Below are positions 1-11,222 of a DNA stretch of 11,222 nucleotides, in pieces. Origin of the DNA: Clostridia bacterium (lineage in GTDB: Bacteria; Bacillota_A; Clostridia; Christensenellales; UBA1242); contig JAQVQJ010000028.1 of the NCBI GenBank assembly GCA_028701635.1, positions 1 to 11,222 of the forward strand, given 5' to 3'. Within the stretch, counting starts at the first letter, position 1. The number at the start of each line of letters is the position of its first letter. A program made the translations under genes and the position numbers. Under the pieces are notes generated by a model. It ran no database searches and had not been told where the DNA came from. It saw nothing but the letters and a program-made list of their open reading frames with translations.

Positions 1-1358
1 ACCTTACCTACATAAGCCCCTATTCCAGTGTCTTGGAATTCTTTATTGAGTAGATTCTTTTTAGTTTCATAATCAAGCCAATAATTAGATAATTCTTCAG
101 AATCATAATATCCCGTAGTGATTATTTCTCCAGTCATTATATTGCTATATCCAGCGTCTCTAATGGCTTTGGAATATGGATATTTACTTTTCTCATTTTT
201 ACCCATTAACTCAACTTCATTGTTTTCGATAATAGATTTGGCTCTAGCTAAAGCAGCTTTTTCTAGTTTTTCGTTCCTCTTTAATGGTTTTAAATTATTG
301 TCTTCTCTGATTTTGTTAATTCTTTGATAATAATCATCTAAATCAAAAGATGGTAATCCATGATCAACACCATCATTTGAAGCATTTCTCAATCTGTCTT
401 TAAATTGATTTTGTTTATTTACTGGCAATATACTTTCAATTTCATTTATTGAAACTAAACCGACTTCTCTTGAATCTTTACTTCTCTTTCTATTGTCACC
501 AAGAACAAAATAATAATCATCAGGTATTTTAATAGTTTTACAGTCTGGTAAAAAAGATCCTCCAAAAGTAGACCTTGGTTTAACAGTATATGGTTCTTTA
601 ATTAGTTGATTATTTACATATAAAAAACCATCACGAATGCTGACTTCATCTCCACTGGTGGCAACAACTCTTTTAATATAACTGGCAATTTGTCCATCTG
701 CATTAGCAGTCATCCCTGATTCAAAAGTAACAATATCTCCTTTTTGTGGTTTAAAAAACAATTTATTTAAAATTGTAAATGAACTTAACCCAACTTTTTC
801 ATTATCAAGAATGGTTGGGTTCATTGAATTACCTACCACCGGTGTACTACCCCTAATTATTCCTAATACTAAAAGAGTAAAAATAATACTTAATCCCCAT
901 ATTGGTAAGAGAATAAAAAAGCCAAACAAAACCTTATTTTGTTTTTTTATGACGAAAAAAGGAAGAAATATAATTGACAAAATGAAAGTAATTATCTTAA
1001 CTAAAATACTTTTTTCTTTTTTATCTACAAATGAAAAATAAATAGCCAAAGTAAAAACCATTAATGAAAAAGAGCAAATTCCTATTATAACGGTGGCATA
1101 TAGACCAATTTGAGAAAAAATATTTTTATATTCTGGATCAATTTTATTTAAAACAAAAGCTAAAATCAAAAAAATACCCATACTAACAAACCATGTTATT
1201 TTTGAAATTTTGGCTATTTTTGTAAAAACAGAATTGTTTTTTAATTTTTGATATTTAGTATTTTTGTCACAAATCAGTTCGTGTTTATCTGATTCTTTTT
1301 TTGTTTTAAATTCTTCACCACAATAATCACAAGTCCAGACTGTTTTATATTTTTTCAT
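1..1358 (-). CDS. lepB: Signal peptidase I with N-terminal zinc-finger-like motif and C-terminal CAP/SCP domain (partial, 3' end off the window)
   Basis: The frame starts at the ATG at 1358-1356 and stays open to base 1, giving about 452 visible residues. Residues 10-30 hold a C-x2-C-x16-C pattern with a His four residues before the last Cys (C10, C13, H26, C30), like a C2HC zinc finger. Hydrophobic segments follow at about 54-70, 87-109, 119-136 and 144-168. The S26 leader peptidase domain then shows all core boxes: GNSMNPT with nucleophile Ser178, YIKRVVA with general base Lys229, and GDNRKRSKDSREVG at 287-300. Known family role: cleavage of signal peptides from exported proteins at the outer face of the membrane. 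From about 340 the sequence matches a CAP/SCP domain (INKIR, a KLEKAALARA helix, GEII, and a final F-x4-GIG). No His is present in its visible part, so the usual CAP metal-site histidines are absent. The chain is much longer than an ordinary LepB. It lies 14 bases after the upstream gene, so it is probably the last or a late gene of an envelope operon. The peptidase call is firm; the fusion roles are inference. Confidence 0.93.
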   Translation of the reverse strand, partial: MKKYKTVWTCDYCGEEFKTKKESDKHELICDKNTKYQKLKNNSVFTKIAKISKITWFVSMGIFLILAFVLNKIDPEYKNIFSQIGLYATVIIGICSFSLMVFTLAIYFSFVDKKEKSILVKIITFILSIIFLPFFVIKKQNKVLFGFFILLPIWGLSIIFTLLVLGIIRGSTPVVGNSMNPTILDNEKVGLSSFTILNKLFFKPQKGDIVTFESGMTANADGQIASYIKRVVATSGDEVSIRDGFLYVNNQLIKEPYTVKPRSTFGGSFLPDCKTIKIPDDYYFVLGDNRKRSKDSREVGLVSINEIESILPVNKQNQFKDRLRNASNDGVDHGLPSFDLDDYYQRINKIREDNNLKPLKRNEKLEKAALARAKSIIENNEVELMGKNEKSKYPYSKAIRDAGYSNIMTGEIITTGYYDSEELSNYWLDYETKKNLLNKEFQDTGIGAYVGK

Positions 1359-4983: not shown

Positions 4984-5688
4984 ATGAACATAGAAAGAAC
5001 AAAATTAAATTGGATAAAATCAAAAAATGAAATTTCAATGGATTTTGAACTTGATGTGGCAATCCATCCTTTTAATAATGGAAAAATTATAATAAATTAT
5101 CCTGGGGCTGATGGTTCTATTGATGGCTACAATGATAAATATGTAAAGATTGCTGATTATCTAATTGACCAAAAAATTGGAGCAGTGGTTAGGATTCCAA
5201 ATATTTCATCTCTTGGTTTTGGTTGGGATATAAATCTAAGAAAAACCTTAACTTATGTATTAGATAATTCAAAAAAAATCTGTGGTAATAATAAACCAGA
5301 AATATATTTAATGGGAACTTCTGCAGGGGCTGGGGCTATTGCTATGACAGCTTGGGAGTATCCTGAAGTTACAAAAATACTCCTAACTGAACCAGCGATA
5401 ATATTCAGTGGTGAACATGGAGTTGAAGGGATTAGGGAATATAAGGGTGATGTGACAATTGTGGTTGGTAAAGGGTCAAATGCCTTGGGGAAAGAAATTG
5501 GTGATAAATTTTTTGATTATTTTATAAATGCTAAACATAAAGAGATTATTGAAATAGAAAATTGCGACCATCAATTTAAAGGAGAAATTAATGGCAGAAT
5601 TATGAGTGAATCCCCTATTTATGCTTTTGCTGAGGGAGAAAAAATTAAATTCCCAGATCCAAATGGTGGAATTAAGCTTTATGACTAA
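4984..5688 (+). CDS. Alpha/beta-hydrolase-fold protein (234 aa)
   Basis: The fold is shown by the nucleophile elbow YLMGTSAGAGA, a GxSxG motif with Ser113, and by a late histidine, His196, in NCDHQFKG. This spacing and context are typical of small alpha/beta hydrolases (esterases, lipases, peptidases). NYPGADGS at 38-45 sits where the oxyanion-hole loop is expected. The catalytic acid is less clear: after the strand DVTIVVGKG (156-164) the usual Asp is replaced by SNALG. Another residue such as Asp174 or Asp195 may serve, or the triad may be incomplete. The protein is cytoplasmic, with no signal peptide. It follows the HAD-like gene by four bases, forming a two-gene unit. Its 3' end overlaps the converging FtsK-like ATPase gene by 17 bases. 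The substrate is unknown. Confidence 0.85.
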   Translation: MNIERTKLNWIKSKNEISMDFELDVAIHPFNNGKIIINYPGADGSIDGYNDKYVKIADYLIDQKIGAVVRIPNISSLGFGWDINLRKTLTYVLDNSKKICGNNKPEIYLMGTSAGAGAIAMTAWEYPEVTKILLTEPAIIFSGEHGVEGIREYKGDVTIVVGKGSNALGKEIGDKFFDYFINAKHKEIIEIENCDHQFKGEINGRIMSESPIYAFAEGEKIKFPDPNGGIKLYD

Positions 5689-6385
5689 GTAAAAAATTTT
5701 TTAAAAACCCATTACAAATGATTTCTTTCTTATTTTTTAGTTGAAATATTCTTGTCCAAGGTTTAGGAATTCCTTCATATGAATGACCTAATATCCGAGA
5801 GGAATAGTCATTTACTTCCCCGTCATAAAATCTATACCATTCATCTCCAGGGATAAAATAACCTTTTAGAGCTGAGTGTTTGATAATTTCTGGAGTAATA
5901 ACACTGGAGGCTGGTCTACTTGTGGAAAATAGTATATATATATTGTTTTTGGAAGACTGTTCGTCAATTGCCGTCCAAACTTCACTTAATAAACTTGGAG
6001 CTTGAAAAACTATGTCACACTCTTCTATTTGGACAATTATTGCTTTTTTTGAATTATCTATTCCAGCATACCTTTCTTCACTTTTTTGAATTAAATTTTT
6101 TAAGACAACTATTGCTTCTTGAATGTCATATATAACTGGGTGGAGTAAATATTCTGAATCTTTATATTCTCCAAATTCAATCCTTTTAAAATCCATAAAA
6201 ATAAAACCAACTTCTTCTGGGGTATTATTACTCATAATTTGTTCAGCAATATTGTGATTAAATATGGTTTTACCTGAACCTGTTGGGCCAGAAATTATAG
6301 TTGTATGAATATTATCCTTATTAAGGTCTAAAAATATTTCTTTTTTACTATCTAATGTTTTTCCTATTGATATTTTTAAATTCAT
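5672..6385 (-). CDS. Short FtsK/SpoIIIE-type P-loop ATPase (active-looking motor subunit, 237 aa)
   Basis: FtsK/SpoIIIE proteins pump double-stranded DNA using a RecA-like motor. This chain is the motor domain almost alone. Walker A is GPTGSGKT (residues 33-40). MDFKRIEF (64-71) corresponds to the family's DPKr-eL segment, and KSEERY (101-106) to its MexRY segment. Walker B is IIVQIEECD (116-124), with Glu121 and Glu122 in place of the usual Asp-Glu pair. FSTSRPASSVITPEIIK (153-169) corresponds to the ATQRPs-dVItg-IK block. There are no membrane helices, no N-terminal alpha region and no C-terminal gamma winged helix, so the chain is far shorter than a complete FtsK. It starts eight bases after the stop of the degenerate paralogue, which carries the missing gamma-like domain. 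I infer that the two proteins assemble. There is no Shine-Dalgarno sequence. The 3' end overlaps the hydrolase gene on the other strand by 17 bases. Confidence 0.9.
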   Translation of the reverse strand: MNLKISIGKTLDSKKEIFLDLNKDNIHTTIISGPTGSGKTIFNHNIAEQIMSNNTPEEVGFIFMDFKRIEFGEYKDSEYLLHPVIYDIQEAIVVLKNLIQKSEERYAGIDNSKKAIIVQIEECDIVFQAPSLLSEVWTAIDEQSSKNNIYILFSTSRPASSVITPEIIKHSALKGYFIPGDEWYRFYDGEVNDYSSRILGHSYEGIPKPWTRIFQLKNKKEIICNGFLKNFLLSHKA

Positions 6386-6393
6386 TTTATATT

Positions 6394-7422
6394 TTATCTA
6401 AAAATCTCCTCATAAATTTCTTTTGGATTTAATTTTTTGATGGTTATTTTTTTCTTGCCTTCAAACATAGTTTCTAGAATGGCTTCATCAGGCGAAGTTA
6501 AATCAGCCGATTCAGGAATACCAGTATCTCTGGCGACTTTTCTATCAGTTGGTTTAAAGACTAATTTGGCTGGACTATTAGCAATAATTTCTTTTGAAGT
6601 TCGAGGATTTGGATAATCAGTGCCGATTACAAAATAAAAACCATATTTTCTACCTGTGACAATAATTCTATAAAGATTATCTTCAACTTCTGATGGTGAA
6701 AACATTAGTAATTGATTAAGTGAATTGATTAAAAATAAAATTTTAGGAAAGCCATTAAAATCAATATCTTTCATCCGTCTTTCAACTTCGGCTACTGACC
6801 ATTTTAAAGCACTAATACTTTTTTCTGCTTCCACAATTAATGGAGTTAATAAATGGGAAGCTTGACTGGGAACAATTAAGTCACCTCTAATTCCATCAAA
6901 AGCAATTATTCTTAACTCTTCAGGTGAATATTTAGCCATCGACTCAGCTAAAATATTATTTAACAGATCAACTGCTGAGGTAAATTGAGAACCAATAATT
7001 AATAAATTACCATAACGCTCAAGATTAAAATTTATTGGTTTATTATTTTCATCAACACCAAGATTAATTTCAAATTGATCTGACTTATTATTAGTATATT
7101 TTGTTTTATTCCATTTTATTTGGGGTTCTTCCTCTTCAATTATTTTTGGTTCTGGTGCTTTATTTATTATTTCCCATTCACCTGAGGAATTGTGTGTCAT
7201 TAAAATATCTCTGGCCTTAGCTCCATTTGAAGGGCCAATTAATCCAGCTTCTTCTATTTCGTCTAGAATCTTAGCTGATCTAGCATAACCAACACTTAAA
7301 CTTCTTTGAAGAAAAGTAGTCGAAGCCTTACCGGTATCTTGAATTAATTTAACAGCTGCATCAAAAAGAGGATCTTTATCCTCTGGGTTTCTTTTTTCAT
7401 TAGGAATAGTATAGTTAAGCAT
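6394..7422 (-). CDS. FtsK-like pseudo-ATPase with N-terminal gamma-type winged helix (342 aa)
   Basis: I chose the ATG at 7422; a TTG two codons upstream at 7428 is possible. Residues 16-75 match the FtsK gamma domain, a DNA-binding winged helix: DPLFDAAVKLI, then ASTTFLQRSLSVGYARSAK, then GLIGPSNGAKARDIL. In ordinary FtsK/SpoIIIE this domain is at the C-terminus and reads oriented sequence marks; here it is first. An acidic linker (EEEEP, about 96-100) leads to a motor-like domain. The Walker A site reads LLIIGSQFTSA (140-150) and has lost GK(S/T). The Walker B site reads KILFLINSLNQLL (227-239), with Asn-Ser where Asp-Glu is expected. Later blocks remain recognisable: VTGRKYGFYFVIGTDYPNP (255-273) for the gRA-gihl-ATQRP region and SKEIIANSPAKLVF for the IKaN-P-ri-F region. 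So the fold is kept but ATP hydrolysis is probably lost. An intact short ATPase follows eight bases downstream. Confidence 0.9.
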   Translation of the reverse strand: MLNYTIPNEKRNPEDKDPLFDAAVKLIQDTGKASTTFLQRSLSVGYARSAKILDEIEEAGLIGPSNGAKARDILMTHNSSGEWEIINKAPEPKIIEEEEPQIKWNKTKYTNNKSDQFEINLGVDENNKPINFNLERYGNLLIIGSQFTSAVDLLNNILAESMAKYSPEELRIIAFDGIRGDLIVPSQASHLLTPLIVEAEKSISALKWSVAEVERRMKDIDFNGFPKILFLINSLNQLLMFSPSEVEDNLYRIIVTGRKYGFYFVIGTDYPNPRTSKEIIANSPAKLVFKPTDRKVARDTGIPESADLTSPDEAILETMFEGKKKITIKKLNPKEIYEEIFR

Positions 7423-7461: not shown

Positions 7462-7674
7462 ATGAAGATGAGTCCGTGGTTTTTAAAATGGTTATGTAGA
7501 ATATTTATTTGGTGTTTAATTGTTTTTGCAATTACTGCAAAGTTAGGGATGACTGCCTTGTTACTTTTATTTTTTATTTCTTACCTTCTTCTCTCTCTAA
7601 TAATCCTTCAAACGATAATAAGAACTTTAATAAAACTATTTTATACTAGACTAGAAATCTATTTACACAATTAA
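7462..7674 (+). CDS. Small two-helix membrane protein (68-70 aa)
   Basis: No family is recognised. The product is almost entirely hydrophobic, with segments at about residues 10-26 and 29-52 and a basic C-terminal tail (RTLIKLFYTRLEIYLHN). Two in-frame ATGs (7462 and 7468) are possible; the promoter spacing favours 7468 if the mRNA is leaderless. The gene fills the gap between the divergent FtsK-like pair and the converging exported protein gene, whose stop is only five bases from its own. The opposite strand has no comparable frame here. Reality as a gene rests on a plausible membrane-protein composition, gene-sized packing and a nearby -10. A role with the DNA motor pair, for example anchoring it to the membrane, is speculation from position. 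Confidence 0.5.
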   Translation: MKMSPWFLKWLCRIFIWCLIVFAITAKLGMTALLLLFFISYLLLSLIILQTIIRTLIKLFYTRLEIYLHN

Positions 7675-9104: not shown

Positions 9105-9857
9105 TTAATCAAACTTATGGGTTGCTTTTCGATAATTACAAAAATCACAATCATCACCAGATTCTGGAATTTTTTTACTATTCAAACATTTATAAATATC
9201 TTTAATTGTTCCCTCAATCCAATCCGGATTGCCAACATATGGCAATAATTTAATATTAAATTCTAATTTTCCATCAAAAGCTTTATTATCAGTTCTACCA
9301 TTACAATAGACAAAATAACCAGTATCTGAAACCTTAAATCCATTTTTTCTAAATAACCATTGATAAACTTCCATCTGTCTCTTGTATCCATCTTGCCATT
9401 CAGCATCTAAAGTAACTTCAGCCTCTTTTGATGTTGCTTTATAATCCACAATAATCAACTCACCACCAGGTTTAACCCAAACATCATCAACTCCACCAGT
9501 AATTAATAAATTAGTTTCCGAATCAAGATAAGTTATCCCTCGACGCAAAGAATCTCGCCATTCATCCATTTTTTCATGTTCAAAAGGAATTGCATCCAAT
9601 TCATAAGCTTTCATTAATGGATGAGCTGTATGACCAGCTCGATGAATATCAAATTCTTTTTTAAGAAGTTTATCGACGGCTGAGTTAAGAGAAAAAGGAT
9701 AACCTGGTGGCTGTCCAATTCCTAAAACTCGATCTAAATAAAAACACTTAGGACAATTTAAAAACATATCAATTTTACTTCGGCTTATTCGAAAAGACTT
9801 TGTATCACTGGGATTATAAAGTCCAAATTGACGATTAGGGTTGTAATATTGAGACAT
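9105..9857 (-). CDS. PD-(D/E)XK nuclease of the RecB/Cas4-like type (250 aa)
   Basis: This family cuts DNA with two metal ions. All expected motifs are present. ISRSKIDMFLNCPKCFYLDR (residues 24-43) is the N-terminal S-x-S-x-CP block. ITGGVDDVWV (119-128) supplies the first acidic residue (Asp124 or Asp125). LIIVDYKAT (134-142) is the DxK core with Asp138 and Lys140. YKRQMEVYQW (158-167) is the QxxxY motif with Gln161 and Tyr165. Near the C-terminus is CDFC (Cys237, Cys240). With Cys35 and Cys38 this makes a CxxC pair at each end, positioned to hold a metal such as zinc or, as in AddB/Cas4 relatives, an iron-sulfur cluster. The single-domain size fits a stand-alone exonuclease; there is no helicase domain. 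No CRISPR array or cas1/cas2 is nearby, so I do not name it cas4. It follows a tail-anchored protein and an OLD-type nuclease. Confidence 0.92.
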   Translation of the reverse strand: MSQYYNPNRQFGLYNPSDTKSFRISRSKIDMFLNCPKCFYLDRVLGIGQPPGYPFSLNSAVDKLLKKEFDIHRAGHTAHPLMKAYELDAIPFEHEKMDEWRDSLRRGITYLDSETNLLITGGVDDVWVKPGGELIIVDYKATSKEAEVTLDAEWQDGYKRQMEVYQWLFRKNGFKVSDTGYFVYCNGRTDNKAFDGKLEFNIKLLPYVGNPDWIEGTIKDIYKCLNSKKIPESGDDCDFCNYRKATHKFD

Positions 9858-10092: not shown

Positions 10093-11222
10093 TTATACTG
10101 TTAATAACGGTATTTTGGTAACTAAAATTTTATTGATATTCATAATATTTTTATTAATATTTTCTTTAGTTTCCATATCAATATTTTTTTTAAAAGCTTT
10201 TTTATCTTTTTTAGAATAAAAAATATAGGTAATAGTCTTTTTTAAATCAGATAAATTGGCAAGTTTTTTTAATCTATCACTATCATTTTTTGAAAACATT
10301 CCCTCTAATAAAATTCTGTTTTCATTTTTATCACAATACTGAATCCAATTATCTGATTCTTTATTTCCAAAGAATTTTTTATATTTTTCAATTGCTTTGT
10401 CACCAGCATTATCTCCATCAAAAACAGCTGTATATCTTTTAGAAGTTCCTATAGCAATGCTAATTAAATATTCATTTTGTTCTGCACCAAATCCAGGTAA
10501 AATGACAATATTTTCTGGTAAAATCATTTTCCAAAAATAAAAATCAGTTATTCCTTCAAAAACTATAACTTTTTTACTTAATGTACTATTAACCGATATT
10601 TTTGTTCTTAAGGCATTATAAAGCGTGGTCATAGCTCCTTGGTTCCTTTTACCTTTTGCCTCAGATAAAGGTACTAAATTAATTTGTCTGTCACTTTTAT
10701 TTGCAATTTTTATTTTATTAATATTAATTATTTCTGGATCAAGTAAAAACTCAGAATGTGTGGAAAAAATAACAGGGTGATCAACGGACAAATCTTTTAT
10801 TGCTTTTAATAAAATACTTTGGGCACTGTTATGTAAATATGAACCTGGCTCATCAAATAAATATATAAATTTTTCCTGAGATCTAGCTCCATAACATTTT
10901 TTAGCACTAAAATTAAAAAACCATCTAAAACCTAGACTTCTTTCGCTGAGTTTCATTGATGGTGAACATTTTTTTTGATTACTATCCTCAAAATTTTCTA
11001 AAATATCAATTTTAATTGACATTTTGTTTTGTCTATCTTGTGACAATTTTATTTCTAAATTTTCCAATTTTCCTTCACCAACTTCATCGTCGATTAAATG
11101 CATCTTAATCCAATCATTTATCATATTTTTTGTAGTTTCTCTATTTATTTCTGTTAAATAAGTGTCTTTAGTATTATCATCATCTTCATTTAAAAATTCT
11201 TTTAAGGGATGTCCTGCTTTTG
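10093..11222 (-). CDS. OLD-family ATPase/TOPRIM nuclease (partial, 5' end off the window)
   Basis: The frame is open from the right edge to the TAA at 10093, about 376 codons. At least 32 codons precede the first visible ATG (11124), so that ATG is internal. The visible part begins within the ABC-type ATPase; Walker A must lie beyond the edge. LSERSLGFRWFFNFS (counted from the internal Met, residues 59-73) is the signature region. IYLFDEPGSYLH (87-98) is Walker B with its D-loop (Asp91, Glu92), and IFSTHSEFLLDP carries the switch His123. A TOPRIM domain follows: VIVFEGITDFYFW with Glu190, and AVFDGDNAGDKA with Asp236 and Asp238. ATPase plus TOPRIM in this order defines OLD (overcoming lysogenization defect) nucleases, several of which act in phage defence alone or with a partner. 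The tail is Lys/Asn-rich. The next genes are a tail-anchored protein and a PD-(D/E)XK nuclease. No UvrD/PcrA-like GajB partner is visible. Confidence 0.92.
   Translation of the reverse strand, partial: KAGHPLKEFLNEDDDNTKDTYLTEINRETTKNMINDWIKMHLIDDEVGEGKLENLEIKLSQDRQNKMSIKIDILENFEDSNQKKCSPSMKLSERSLGFRWFFNFSAKKCYGARSQEKFIYLFDEPGSYLHNSAQSILLKAIKDLSVDHPVIFSTHSEFLLDPEIININKIKIANKSDRQINLVPLSEAKGKRNQGAMTTLYNALRTKISVNSTLSKKVIVFEGITDFYFWKMILPENIVILPGFGAEQNEYLISIAIGTSKRYTAVFDGDNAGDKAIEKYKKFFGNKESDNWIQYCDKNENRILLEGMFSKNDSDRLKKLANLSDLKKTITYIFYSKKDKKAFKKNIDMETKENINKNIMNINKILVTKIPLLTV

What the first reader, a model, noticed from the sequence alone, without database searches (positions are those of the whole stretch)
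5672..7422. Split FtsK-like motor: an ATP-dead subunit with relocated gamma domain plus a short intact ATPase
Two adjacent genes eight bases apart both align with the FtsK/SpoIIIE motor. The first has a gamma-type winged helix at its N-terminus (QRSLSVGYARSAK, KARDIL) and has lost both Walker motifs (GSQFTSA; LINSLNQ). The second keeps GPTGSGKT and an acidic Walker B but has no gamma or membrane domain. Seen: the motif losses and domain order. Known: FtsK normally has alpha-beta-gamma order in one chain and works as a homohexamer. Inference: the pair forms a heteromeric DNA translocase in which the dead subunit supplies DNA reading, perhaps for plasmid or element transfer or an unusual segregation step. 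I know of no described system with this exact split, but could not search.
Basis: partly seen in the sequence, partly recalled or inferred. Interest (0 to 1): 0.78.

Follow-up and report, generated by a model that had tools for sequence, protein, structure and literature searches.

The report
Dead FtsK copy with host-type reader
In very small uncultured bacteria, a broken-looking copy of the DNA pump FtsK, with its DNA-reading domain moved to the front, turns out to be a conserved gene family found beside anti-virus defence genes, and its reading domain resembles the host's own pump, which suggests that it reads the host's DNA signposts rather than pumping DNA.

Summary
Observation confirmed. 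P1 (6394-7422, minus) is FtsK gamma followed by an FtsK beta fold lacking Walker A and B; P2 (5672-6385, minus) is a short beta domain with Walker A. P1 is a conserved family, not local decay: 133 proteins counting the window's own. In 116 aligned, 0 keep the Walker A lysine or either Walker B acid, yet 114 keep R or K at the trans arginine finger. The proposed fixed P1-P2 pair is not supported: no P2-type motor in 7 fetched reference-genome neighbourhoods.

New here: (1) the dead betas form one clade (long-branch warning) but their gammas do not (AU p 0.006); the window's gamma is 85% identical in DNA to a Shapirobacteria ftsK gamma over 177 bases, ending near the domain edges. (2) All 7 reference loci have restriction or modification genes within about 6 kb. 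(3) FtsK alpha, gamma-alpha and nuclease-gamma proteins also occur apart.

Best reading: an island-borne, non-pumping FtsK that reads host FtsK signposts and docks on an active FtsK-type subunit. Function is inferred.

The parts
6394..7422 (-). P1: gamma-first, ATP-dead FtsK paralogue, 342 aa
7195..7383 (-). FtsK gamma winged helix of P1 (residues 14-76); gene bases 49-225 (7198-7374) are 85.3% identical in DNA to the gamma of the chromosomal ftsK of genome G040
   Evidence: Pfam; blastn; tree
6397..7113 (-). FtsK beta (RecA-like) fold of P1 without Walker A and B
6970..6993 (-). Walker A position of P1, GSQFTSAV
6712..6732 (-). Walker B position of P1, LINSLNQ
6649..6651 (-). Arginine of P1 (residue 258) at the column of the FtsK arginine finger R620
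5672..6385 (-). P2: short beta-only FtsK-type ATPase, 237 aa; 8 bases downstream of P1
6266..6289 (-). Walker A of P2, GPTGSGKT
9105..9857 (-). Cas4-like PD-(D/E)XK nuclease upstream in the same direction; its family occurs fused to FtsK gamma in 2 genomes seen (G009, G315). Belonging to the system is not shown
10093..11220 (-). End of an OLD-type ATPase with Toprim domain, cut by the window end; defence-type neighbour. Belonging not shown
7462..7674 (+). 70-aa hydrophobic ORF divergent from P1; unsure whether a gene

Best explanation
P1 belongs to a conserved family of ATP-dead, gamma-first FtsK paralogues carried on accessory, defence-gene-rich stretches of Microgenomates (Patescibacteria) chromosomes. 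Shown by sequence: the gamma domain is of host-lineage type, the beta fold has lost both nucleotide motifs in every member examined, and the trans arginine-finger position stays basic. Inferred: P1 binds the same short polar sequences that the host's FtsK reads (KOPS/SRS type), does not translocate, and docks through its beta fold on an active FtsK-type subunit, as a rule the host's own FtsK and in this window perhaps also P2. It would so tie a nuclease- and restriction-rich island to the host's FtsK-marked chromosome, for example by keeping that machinery off, or steering it along, self DNA.
For: Conserved family: 133 proteins with E<=1e-3 including the window's own, 120 listed. Walker A lysine 0 of 116, Walker B D and E 0 of 116, arginine-finger column R 83 and K 31 of 116. 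Short gamma-beta ORFs in 7 of 373 class genomes drawn; none of the 7 read has a Walker A. 3 of 3 P1 genomes checked carry a full-length ftsK; the other 4 show a second match that I did not inspect. Dead betas are one clade, 100/99.8; P1 gammas are not, AU p 0.00636, and the window's gamma is sister to the canonical gammas of G001 and G040, 100/91. The window's gamma DNA is 85.3% identical to that of G040 over 177 bases. The gamma contact triplet is A-R-D or A-K-D in 105 of 115 P1 gammas and in 75 of 75 canonical ones (triplet positions recalled, rows picked by a QR motif). Restriction or modification genes within about 6 kb of 7 of 7 reference P1-type genes. Leave-one-out sharing of defence-type companions: 5 of 8 P1 loci against 0 of 38 canonical ftsK loci. 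Gamma is fused to a Cas4-like nuclease in G009 and G315.
Against: No function or binding was tested. In G023 and G020 the P1 gamma is not closest in DNA to the canonical gamma of its own genome, so gamma follows the lineage, not strictly the single host. The window's nuclease family is not enriched in P1-type genomes (2 of 7 against 116 of 373). Leave-one-out comparison with restriction seeds finds only 2 of 8 P1 loci (0 of 38 controls), because the restriction systems differ from locus to locus. The dead-beta clade carries a long-branch warning. In the P1-like proteins of G284, G161, G221 and G246 the arginine-finger position is not clearly kept (read by eye). Patescibacterial KOPS are not known to me.
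Confidence: 0.45

Rival explanations
1. P1 and P2 form a dedicated heteromeric translocase: P2 hydrolyses ATP, P1 reads DNA and supplies the arginine finger in trans.
For: The two genes lie 8 bases apart; P2 has an intact Walker A and keeps R632 as R or K in the relatives whose motif I read; P1 keeps R or K at the arginine-finger column in 114 of 116, so the two look complementary. P2's own basic residue lies one position off the R620 column (by eye).
Against: No P2-type motor in 7 fetched reference neighbourhoods; P2 in 0 of 43 genomes of the order; no shared longest-contig length among the listings other than the window's. P1 lost loop II grip residues R632 and K643. Neither window gene has an alpha domain, and none was found in the window.
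Confidence: 0.2
2. P1 is a DNA-binding regulator: the winged-helix gamma acts on the promoter that it shares with a divergent neighbour, often a restriction or modification gene, and the dead P-loop fold is a scaffold or sensor.
For: The upstream neighbour is divergent in 6 of 8 P1 loci (ORFs of 100 aa or more; background 32 of 112) or 7 of 8 (60 aa or more; background 41 of 136), gaps 32-116 bases. The divergent neighbour is a DNA methyltransferase in G161 and G221.
Against: A gamma that matches the host's FtsK gamma would be expected to bind sites all over the chromosome. No shared operator was searched for.
Confidence: 0.15
3. P1 is a trans-acting Xer activator: its gamma activates the host's XerD-type recombinase without FtsK translocation, for an element that uses dif.
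For: The gamma surface that binds XerD overlaps the DNA-reading surface, and a tethered 9-residue gamma peptide activates recombination in E. coli (PMC5052618, passages). P1 members keep the QR of this region in 116 of 120, QK in 1, gap in 3.
Against: No Xer gene or dif site was looked for or seen near P1; the same residues are shared with KOPS reading; the nuclease-gamma fusions lack this arginine (QQ and QG).
Confidence: 0.1
4. P1 is a decaying copy of ftsK without function.
For: Both nucleotide motifs are lost.
Against: A conserved GSQFT-type replacement and full-length reading frames across many sequence clusters, and one dead-beta clade.
Confidence: 0.02

Closest known systems
FtsK/SpoIIIE DNA translocase
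   Same: Beta fold (best PDB matches 6t8g, 2iut, 2ius) and gamma domain (PF09397), clearly homologous.
   Different: Gamma first, no alpha and no membrane domain, both Walker motifs lost, loop II grip residues lost.
Orphan FtsK_gamma proteins of phages, and the gamma-containing small terminase of Bacillus phages Sam46 and Sam112
   Same: A gamma domain detached from the motor; PMC8190038 says that single FtsK_gamma genes occur in phages with unknown role (passages). I saw such ORFs in viral contigs.
   Different: Those carry no FtsK beta in the ORFs read with gamma alone; P1's motor part found no viral contig match.
HerA/FtsK capture systems and DndH/SspH
   Same: FtsK-type motors with nucleases in defence loci (PMC10853773, passages); P2 matches SspH 5.4e-10 and DndH 6.6e-6 in PADLOC.
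   Different: P1 is ATP-dead with an FtsK gamma; the nuclease is Cas4-like; no Dnd/Ssp genes were recognised in the window.
Type VII secretion ATPases EccC/EssC
   Same: FtsK-like folds; weaker structural and sequence matches. That some of their ATPase domains are degenerate is recalled.
   Different: Several ATPase domains in one membrane protein, no gamma.

Membership tests
FtsK/SpoIIIE translocase (functional) | RecA-like beta domain of FtsK type | tested here: met
   Pfam and PDB matches for P1 and P2
FtsK/SpoIIIE translocase (functional) | Walker A and B motifs | tested here: not met
   P1: 0 of 116 aligned relatives with the lysine or either acid. P2 keeps Walker A
FtsK/SpoIIIE translocase (functional) | Alpha domain and membrane domain in the chain | tested here: not met
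   No FtsK_alpha match in P1 or P2; no match to the G023 alpha protein in the window's six frames
FtsK/SpoIIIE translocase (functional) | Gamma domain | tested here: met
   P1 PF09397 6.1e-23; absent in P2
FtsK/SpoIIIE translocase (functional) | DNA-grip loops (R632, K643, R661 of P. aeruginosa FtsK) | tested here: not met
   P1: R632 0 of 116, K643 gap in 116 of 116, R661 K in 85 and R in 3; residue numbers from PMC7321959 passages placed
FtsK/SpoIIIE translocase (functional) | ATP-driven DNA translocation | not testable with these tools
   Needs biochemistry
Heteromeric ring ATPase with a dead subunit | Dead subunit keeps the arginine finger | tested here: met
   R 83 and K 31 of 116; not clearly kept in the 4 P1-like proteins of other lineages (by eye)
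Heteromeric ring ATPase with a dead subunit | Constant genetic linkage to an active partner gene | tested here: not met
   No P2-type gene in 7 reference neighbourhoods
Anti-phage defence component | Location among defence genes | tested here: met
   7 of 7 reference loci; companions shared leave-one-out 5 of 8 against 0 of 38; but restriction seeds leave-one-out 2 of 8 against 0 of 38
Anti-phage defence component | Match to a described system | tested here: not met
   P1 has only marginal PADLOC matches, mad8 9.8e-4 and SspH 0.0031
Anti-phage defence component | Protection against phage | not testable with these tools
   No experiment

The most novel reading that the evidence does not exclude
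A self-recognition part of a defence island: FtsK-type gamma domains, on P1 or fused to Cas4-like nucleases, read the polar KOPS-type sequences that mark the host chromosome. The dead FtsK fold joins the host's own FtsK ring or sits as a static block at these sites, so that island nucleases are steered by, or kept off, FtsK-marked self DNA, much as Chi sites steer RecBCD. The gamma part is exchanged with host ftsK genes so that it stays matched to the host.
Probability: 0.2. Interest if true: 0.85.

Novelty: new variant of a known kind. Interest (0 to 1): 0.6.

Why it matters
A conserved ATP-dead FtsK with a host-type reading domain would be a pseudo-motor in bacterial chromosome segregation, sitting in defence-gene neighbourhoods of a group whose phage resistance is poorly known. 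It makes testable whether FtsK signposts (KOPS) serve other proteins than FtsK, and whether elements control the host's FtsK by adding a dead subunit. My paper searches did not find such a protein: FtsK with Shapirobacteria 0 papers; FtsK, pseudo-ATPase and Walker A 0; FtsK_gamma with nuclease and fusion 2, both seen as listings on other topics; the listings also show none by title. These cover one open-licence library only.

Tried and rejected
Local decay was rejected by conservation. One of 120 proteins (P0030) holds a GxxxxGK[ST] string, but not in the Walker A column. A phage or plasmid origin was looked for: the motor part found no relative in viral contigs, P2 none; the plasmid and phage matches to P1 were all below 60% identity (228 and 136 records), and I did not read each.

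The genome-contig scan with the full-length family gave 562 relatives, 80 kept; the 8 genome-contig loci read were all ordinary ftsK, so motor-only and profile searches followed. A first P1 search at E<=1e-40 saw 3 of 373 class genomes; the profile search saw 7 of 373, so the early counts were too low.

A tight link of the window's nuclease to P1 was considered and dropped: 2 of 7 P1-type genomes against 116 of 373. Of 42 nuclease loci examined, 3 had a non-canonical FtsK piece near (G315 fusion, G284 P1-like, G199 beta-only) and 2 a canonical ftsK (G305, G060); 5 of the 42 had been fetched for their long reading frames, which biases the count.

The link of P1 with free-standing alpha: both in 2 of 43 genomes and nowhere else among the 43 (P1 status of 9 of the 43 rests on handle numbers of the class search); Fisher 0.0011, but one of the two pairs is adjacent. 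Two other P1-type genomes, G252 and G246, have no free-standing alpha.

My first placing of the arginine finger (after) was by a number offset and was wrong; searches corrected it. In one search the BRO query was mislabelled, so its hit in L281 is a self-hit and is not counted; L281 still counts through the nuclease and the protease, though that locus was first met through the nuclease. In one search the seeds came from the same loci, so only the leave-one-out one search is used as a control.
Full report
WHAT IS THERE. On the minus strand, P1 (7422-6394, 342 aa) is followed after 8 bases by P2 (6385-5672, 237 aa). P1 matches FtsK_gamma (6.1e-23) and then FtsK_SpoIIIE (2.2e-14); P2 matches FtsK_SpoIIIE (1.2e-16). 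P1 lacks Walker A and B; P2 has GPTGSGKT. Models of both match FtsK motor domains best. No whole genome is held for the window.

P1 IS A FAMILY. A search of 5.8 billion proteins gave 133 with E<=1e-3, the window's own included; 120 are listed, nearly all about 340 aa, with both domains in the same order in the 32 aligned. Of the five listed names that give an organism, four are Patescibacteria (two of them Shapirobacteria) and one is Methanoperedens, a partial protein. In 116 members longer than 300 aa, aligned with 30 canonical FtsK motors, 0 have the Walker A lysine and 0 either Walker B acid; the finger column has R in 83 and K in 31; R632 is lost in all, K643 is a gap in all, R661 is K in 85. 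The residue roles are from PMC7321959 (passages), placed through the 2iut alignment. This is the pattern expected of a dead subunit that still faces an active neighbour, but not of one that grips DNA.

HOW COMMON. With a 14-member profile, 7 of 373 genomes drawn from the class carry a short gamma-then-beta ORF (frames of 311-361 aa): G023, G020, G252, G284, G161, G221, G246. In the 7 sequences read, Walker A is lost. Earlier, stricter searches with the single protein gave 2 of 34 (family), 3 of 373 (class), 1 of 88 (order of G252) and 1 of 379 (phylum draw). So P1 is accessory. 3 of 3 P1 genomes checked carry a full-length ftsK elsewhere; the other four show a second match that I did not inspect.

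P2. Its family is smaller: 18 proteins by sequence, 55 with the profile, the last of these merely other FtsK-type motors. It was found in 0 of 43 genomes of the order (without a positive control). It is not beside P1 in the 7 reference neighbourhoods. Of 120 and 37 listed longest-contig lengths for P1 and P2 relatives, only the window's is shared, a coarse test. A beta-only short motor with intact Walker A but a changed Walker B follows a relative of the window's nuclease in G199.

GAMMA AND BETA HAVE DIFFERENT HISTORIES. In a tree of 46 beta domains the 20 dead ones are one side of a branch (100/99.8; long-branch warning). In a tree of 73 gammas (58 columns) the 28 P1 gammas are not one clade (AU p 0.00636); the window's gamma is sister to the canonical gammas of G001 and G040 (100/91), and the P1-like gamma of G284 groups with Gottesmanbacteria and Daviesbacteria canonical gammas. 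In DNA the window's gamma is 85.3% identical to that of G040 over gene bases 49-225, falling to roughly 40-55% in windows outside; a 39-base patch in beta is 94.9% identical and a 73-base patch 75.3%. This suggests exchange with a chromosomal ftsK. It is not general: the P1 gammas of G023 and G020 are only 72% and 65% identical in DNA to the canonical gamma of their own genome and closer to others.

NEIGHBOURS. Window: OLD-type ATPase with Toprim (PADLOC Old 4.6e-12), Cas4-like nuclease, P1 and P2, all on the minus strand. G023: hsdM, hsdS-like, hsdR, a methylase-specificity gene, a PD-(D/E)XK protein, a trypsin-like membrane protease and an alpha-only FtsK protein directly before P1. G009: hsdM, hsdS-like, hsdR, a nuclease-gamma fusion, and a protease 39% identical to that of G023 over the aligned part. 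G020: Type ISP enzyme and DUF2130 near P1; elsewhere in the genome a gamma-alpha protein beside hsdM. G252: UmuD- and UmuC-type genes, DUF2779, hsdM and hsdR. G161: N6/N4 methylase and MutH-type gene next to P1. G221: C5 methylase next to P1, DUF2130 and DUF2779 near. G246: Eco57I-type enzyme and PLD helicase. G284: DpnI-type enzyme. So 7 of 7 reference P1-type loci have a restriction or modification gene within about 6.2 kb. Control: with seeds not taken from the same genome, restriction genes are found in 2 of 8 P1 loci and 0 of 38 canonical ftsK loci; other companions are shared in 5 of 8 against 0 of 38 (Fisher 4e-5). Canonical ftsK loci are not random loci, so this control is imperfect. 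P1 is divergent from its upstream neighbour in 6 of 8 loci (background 32 of 112) or 7 of 8 (41 of 136), by ORF cut-off (Fisher 0.012 and 0.002).

MECHANISM. Shown: sequence facts only. Established (papers, passages seen): gamma reads KOPS and activates XerD through one surface, and the motor needs the arginine finger in trans. Inferred: P1 reads the host's FtsK signposts, does not pump, and docks on an active FtsK-type beta. I put this at 0.45, the P1-P2 translocase at 0.2, a regulator of the divergent neighbour at 0.15, a Xer activator at 0.1.

NOVELTY. Free gamma domains are known from phages (PMC8190038, passages). HerA/FtsK motors captured by defence systems are known (PMC10853773, passages). 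A conserved ATP-dead gamma-first FtsK family was not found in my paper searches, which cover one open library. I file it as a new variant of a known kind.

Noticed in passing
L177:9769-10644 (G009) and L202:814-1767 (G315): Cas4-like PD-(D/E)XK nuclease fused to a C-terminal FtsK gamma; the fused gammas lack the QR arginine (QQ, QG) but keep the GYAR helix.
   Followed up: partly
L126:8653-9198 (G023) and L176:9475-10242 (G020): Free-standing FtsK alpha, and a gamma-alpha fusion, each with a hydrophobic C-terminal stretch; among 43 genomes of the order only the two with P1 have one.
   Followed up: partly
L228:7598-8365 (G199): Beta-only FtsK motor of 255 aa, 69 bases after a relative of the window's nuclease; Walker B reads IIIDTFSDLM, so the catalytic glutamate looks lost.
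   Followed up: no
L126, L177, L217, L229, L231, L278: A trypsin-like protein (Trypsin_2 by Pfam in L126 and L177, by sequence similarity in the others) recurs in these defence-type neighbourhoods.
   Followed up: partly
window 9105-9857: The window's Cas4-like nuclease family occurs in 116 of 373 class genomes (E<=1e-10), often near 70% identity, mostly as a separate gene; its role is unknown.
   Followed up: partly
window 3-1358: Signal peptidase S26 joined to a CAP domain, cut by the window end.
   Followed up: no
viral contigs L087-L092: ORFs of about 250 aa with a C-terminal orphan FtsK gamma, similar to each other.
   Followed up: no
L246 (G305) and L239 (G060): Full-length ftsK next to, or 2.2 kb from, a relative of the window's nuclease.
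   Followed up: no
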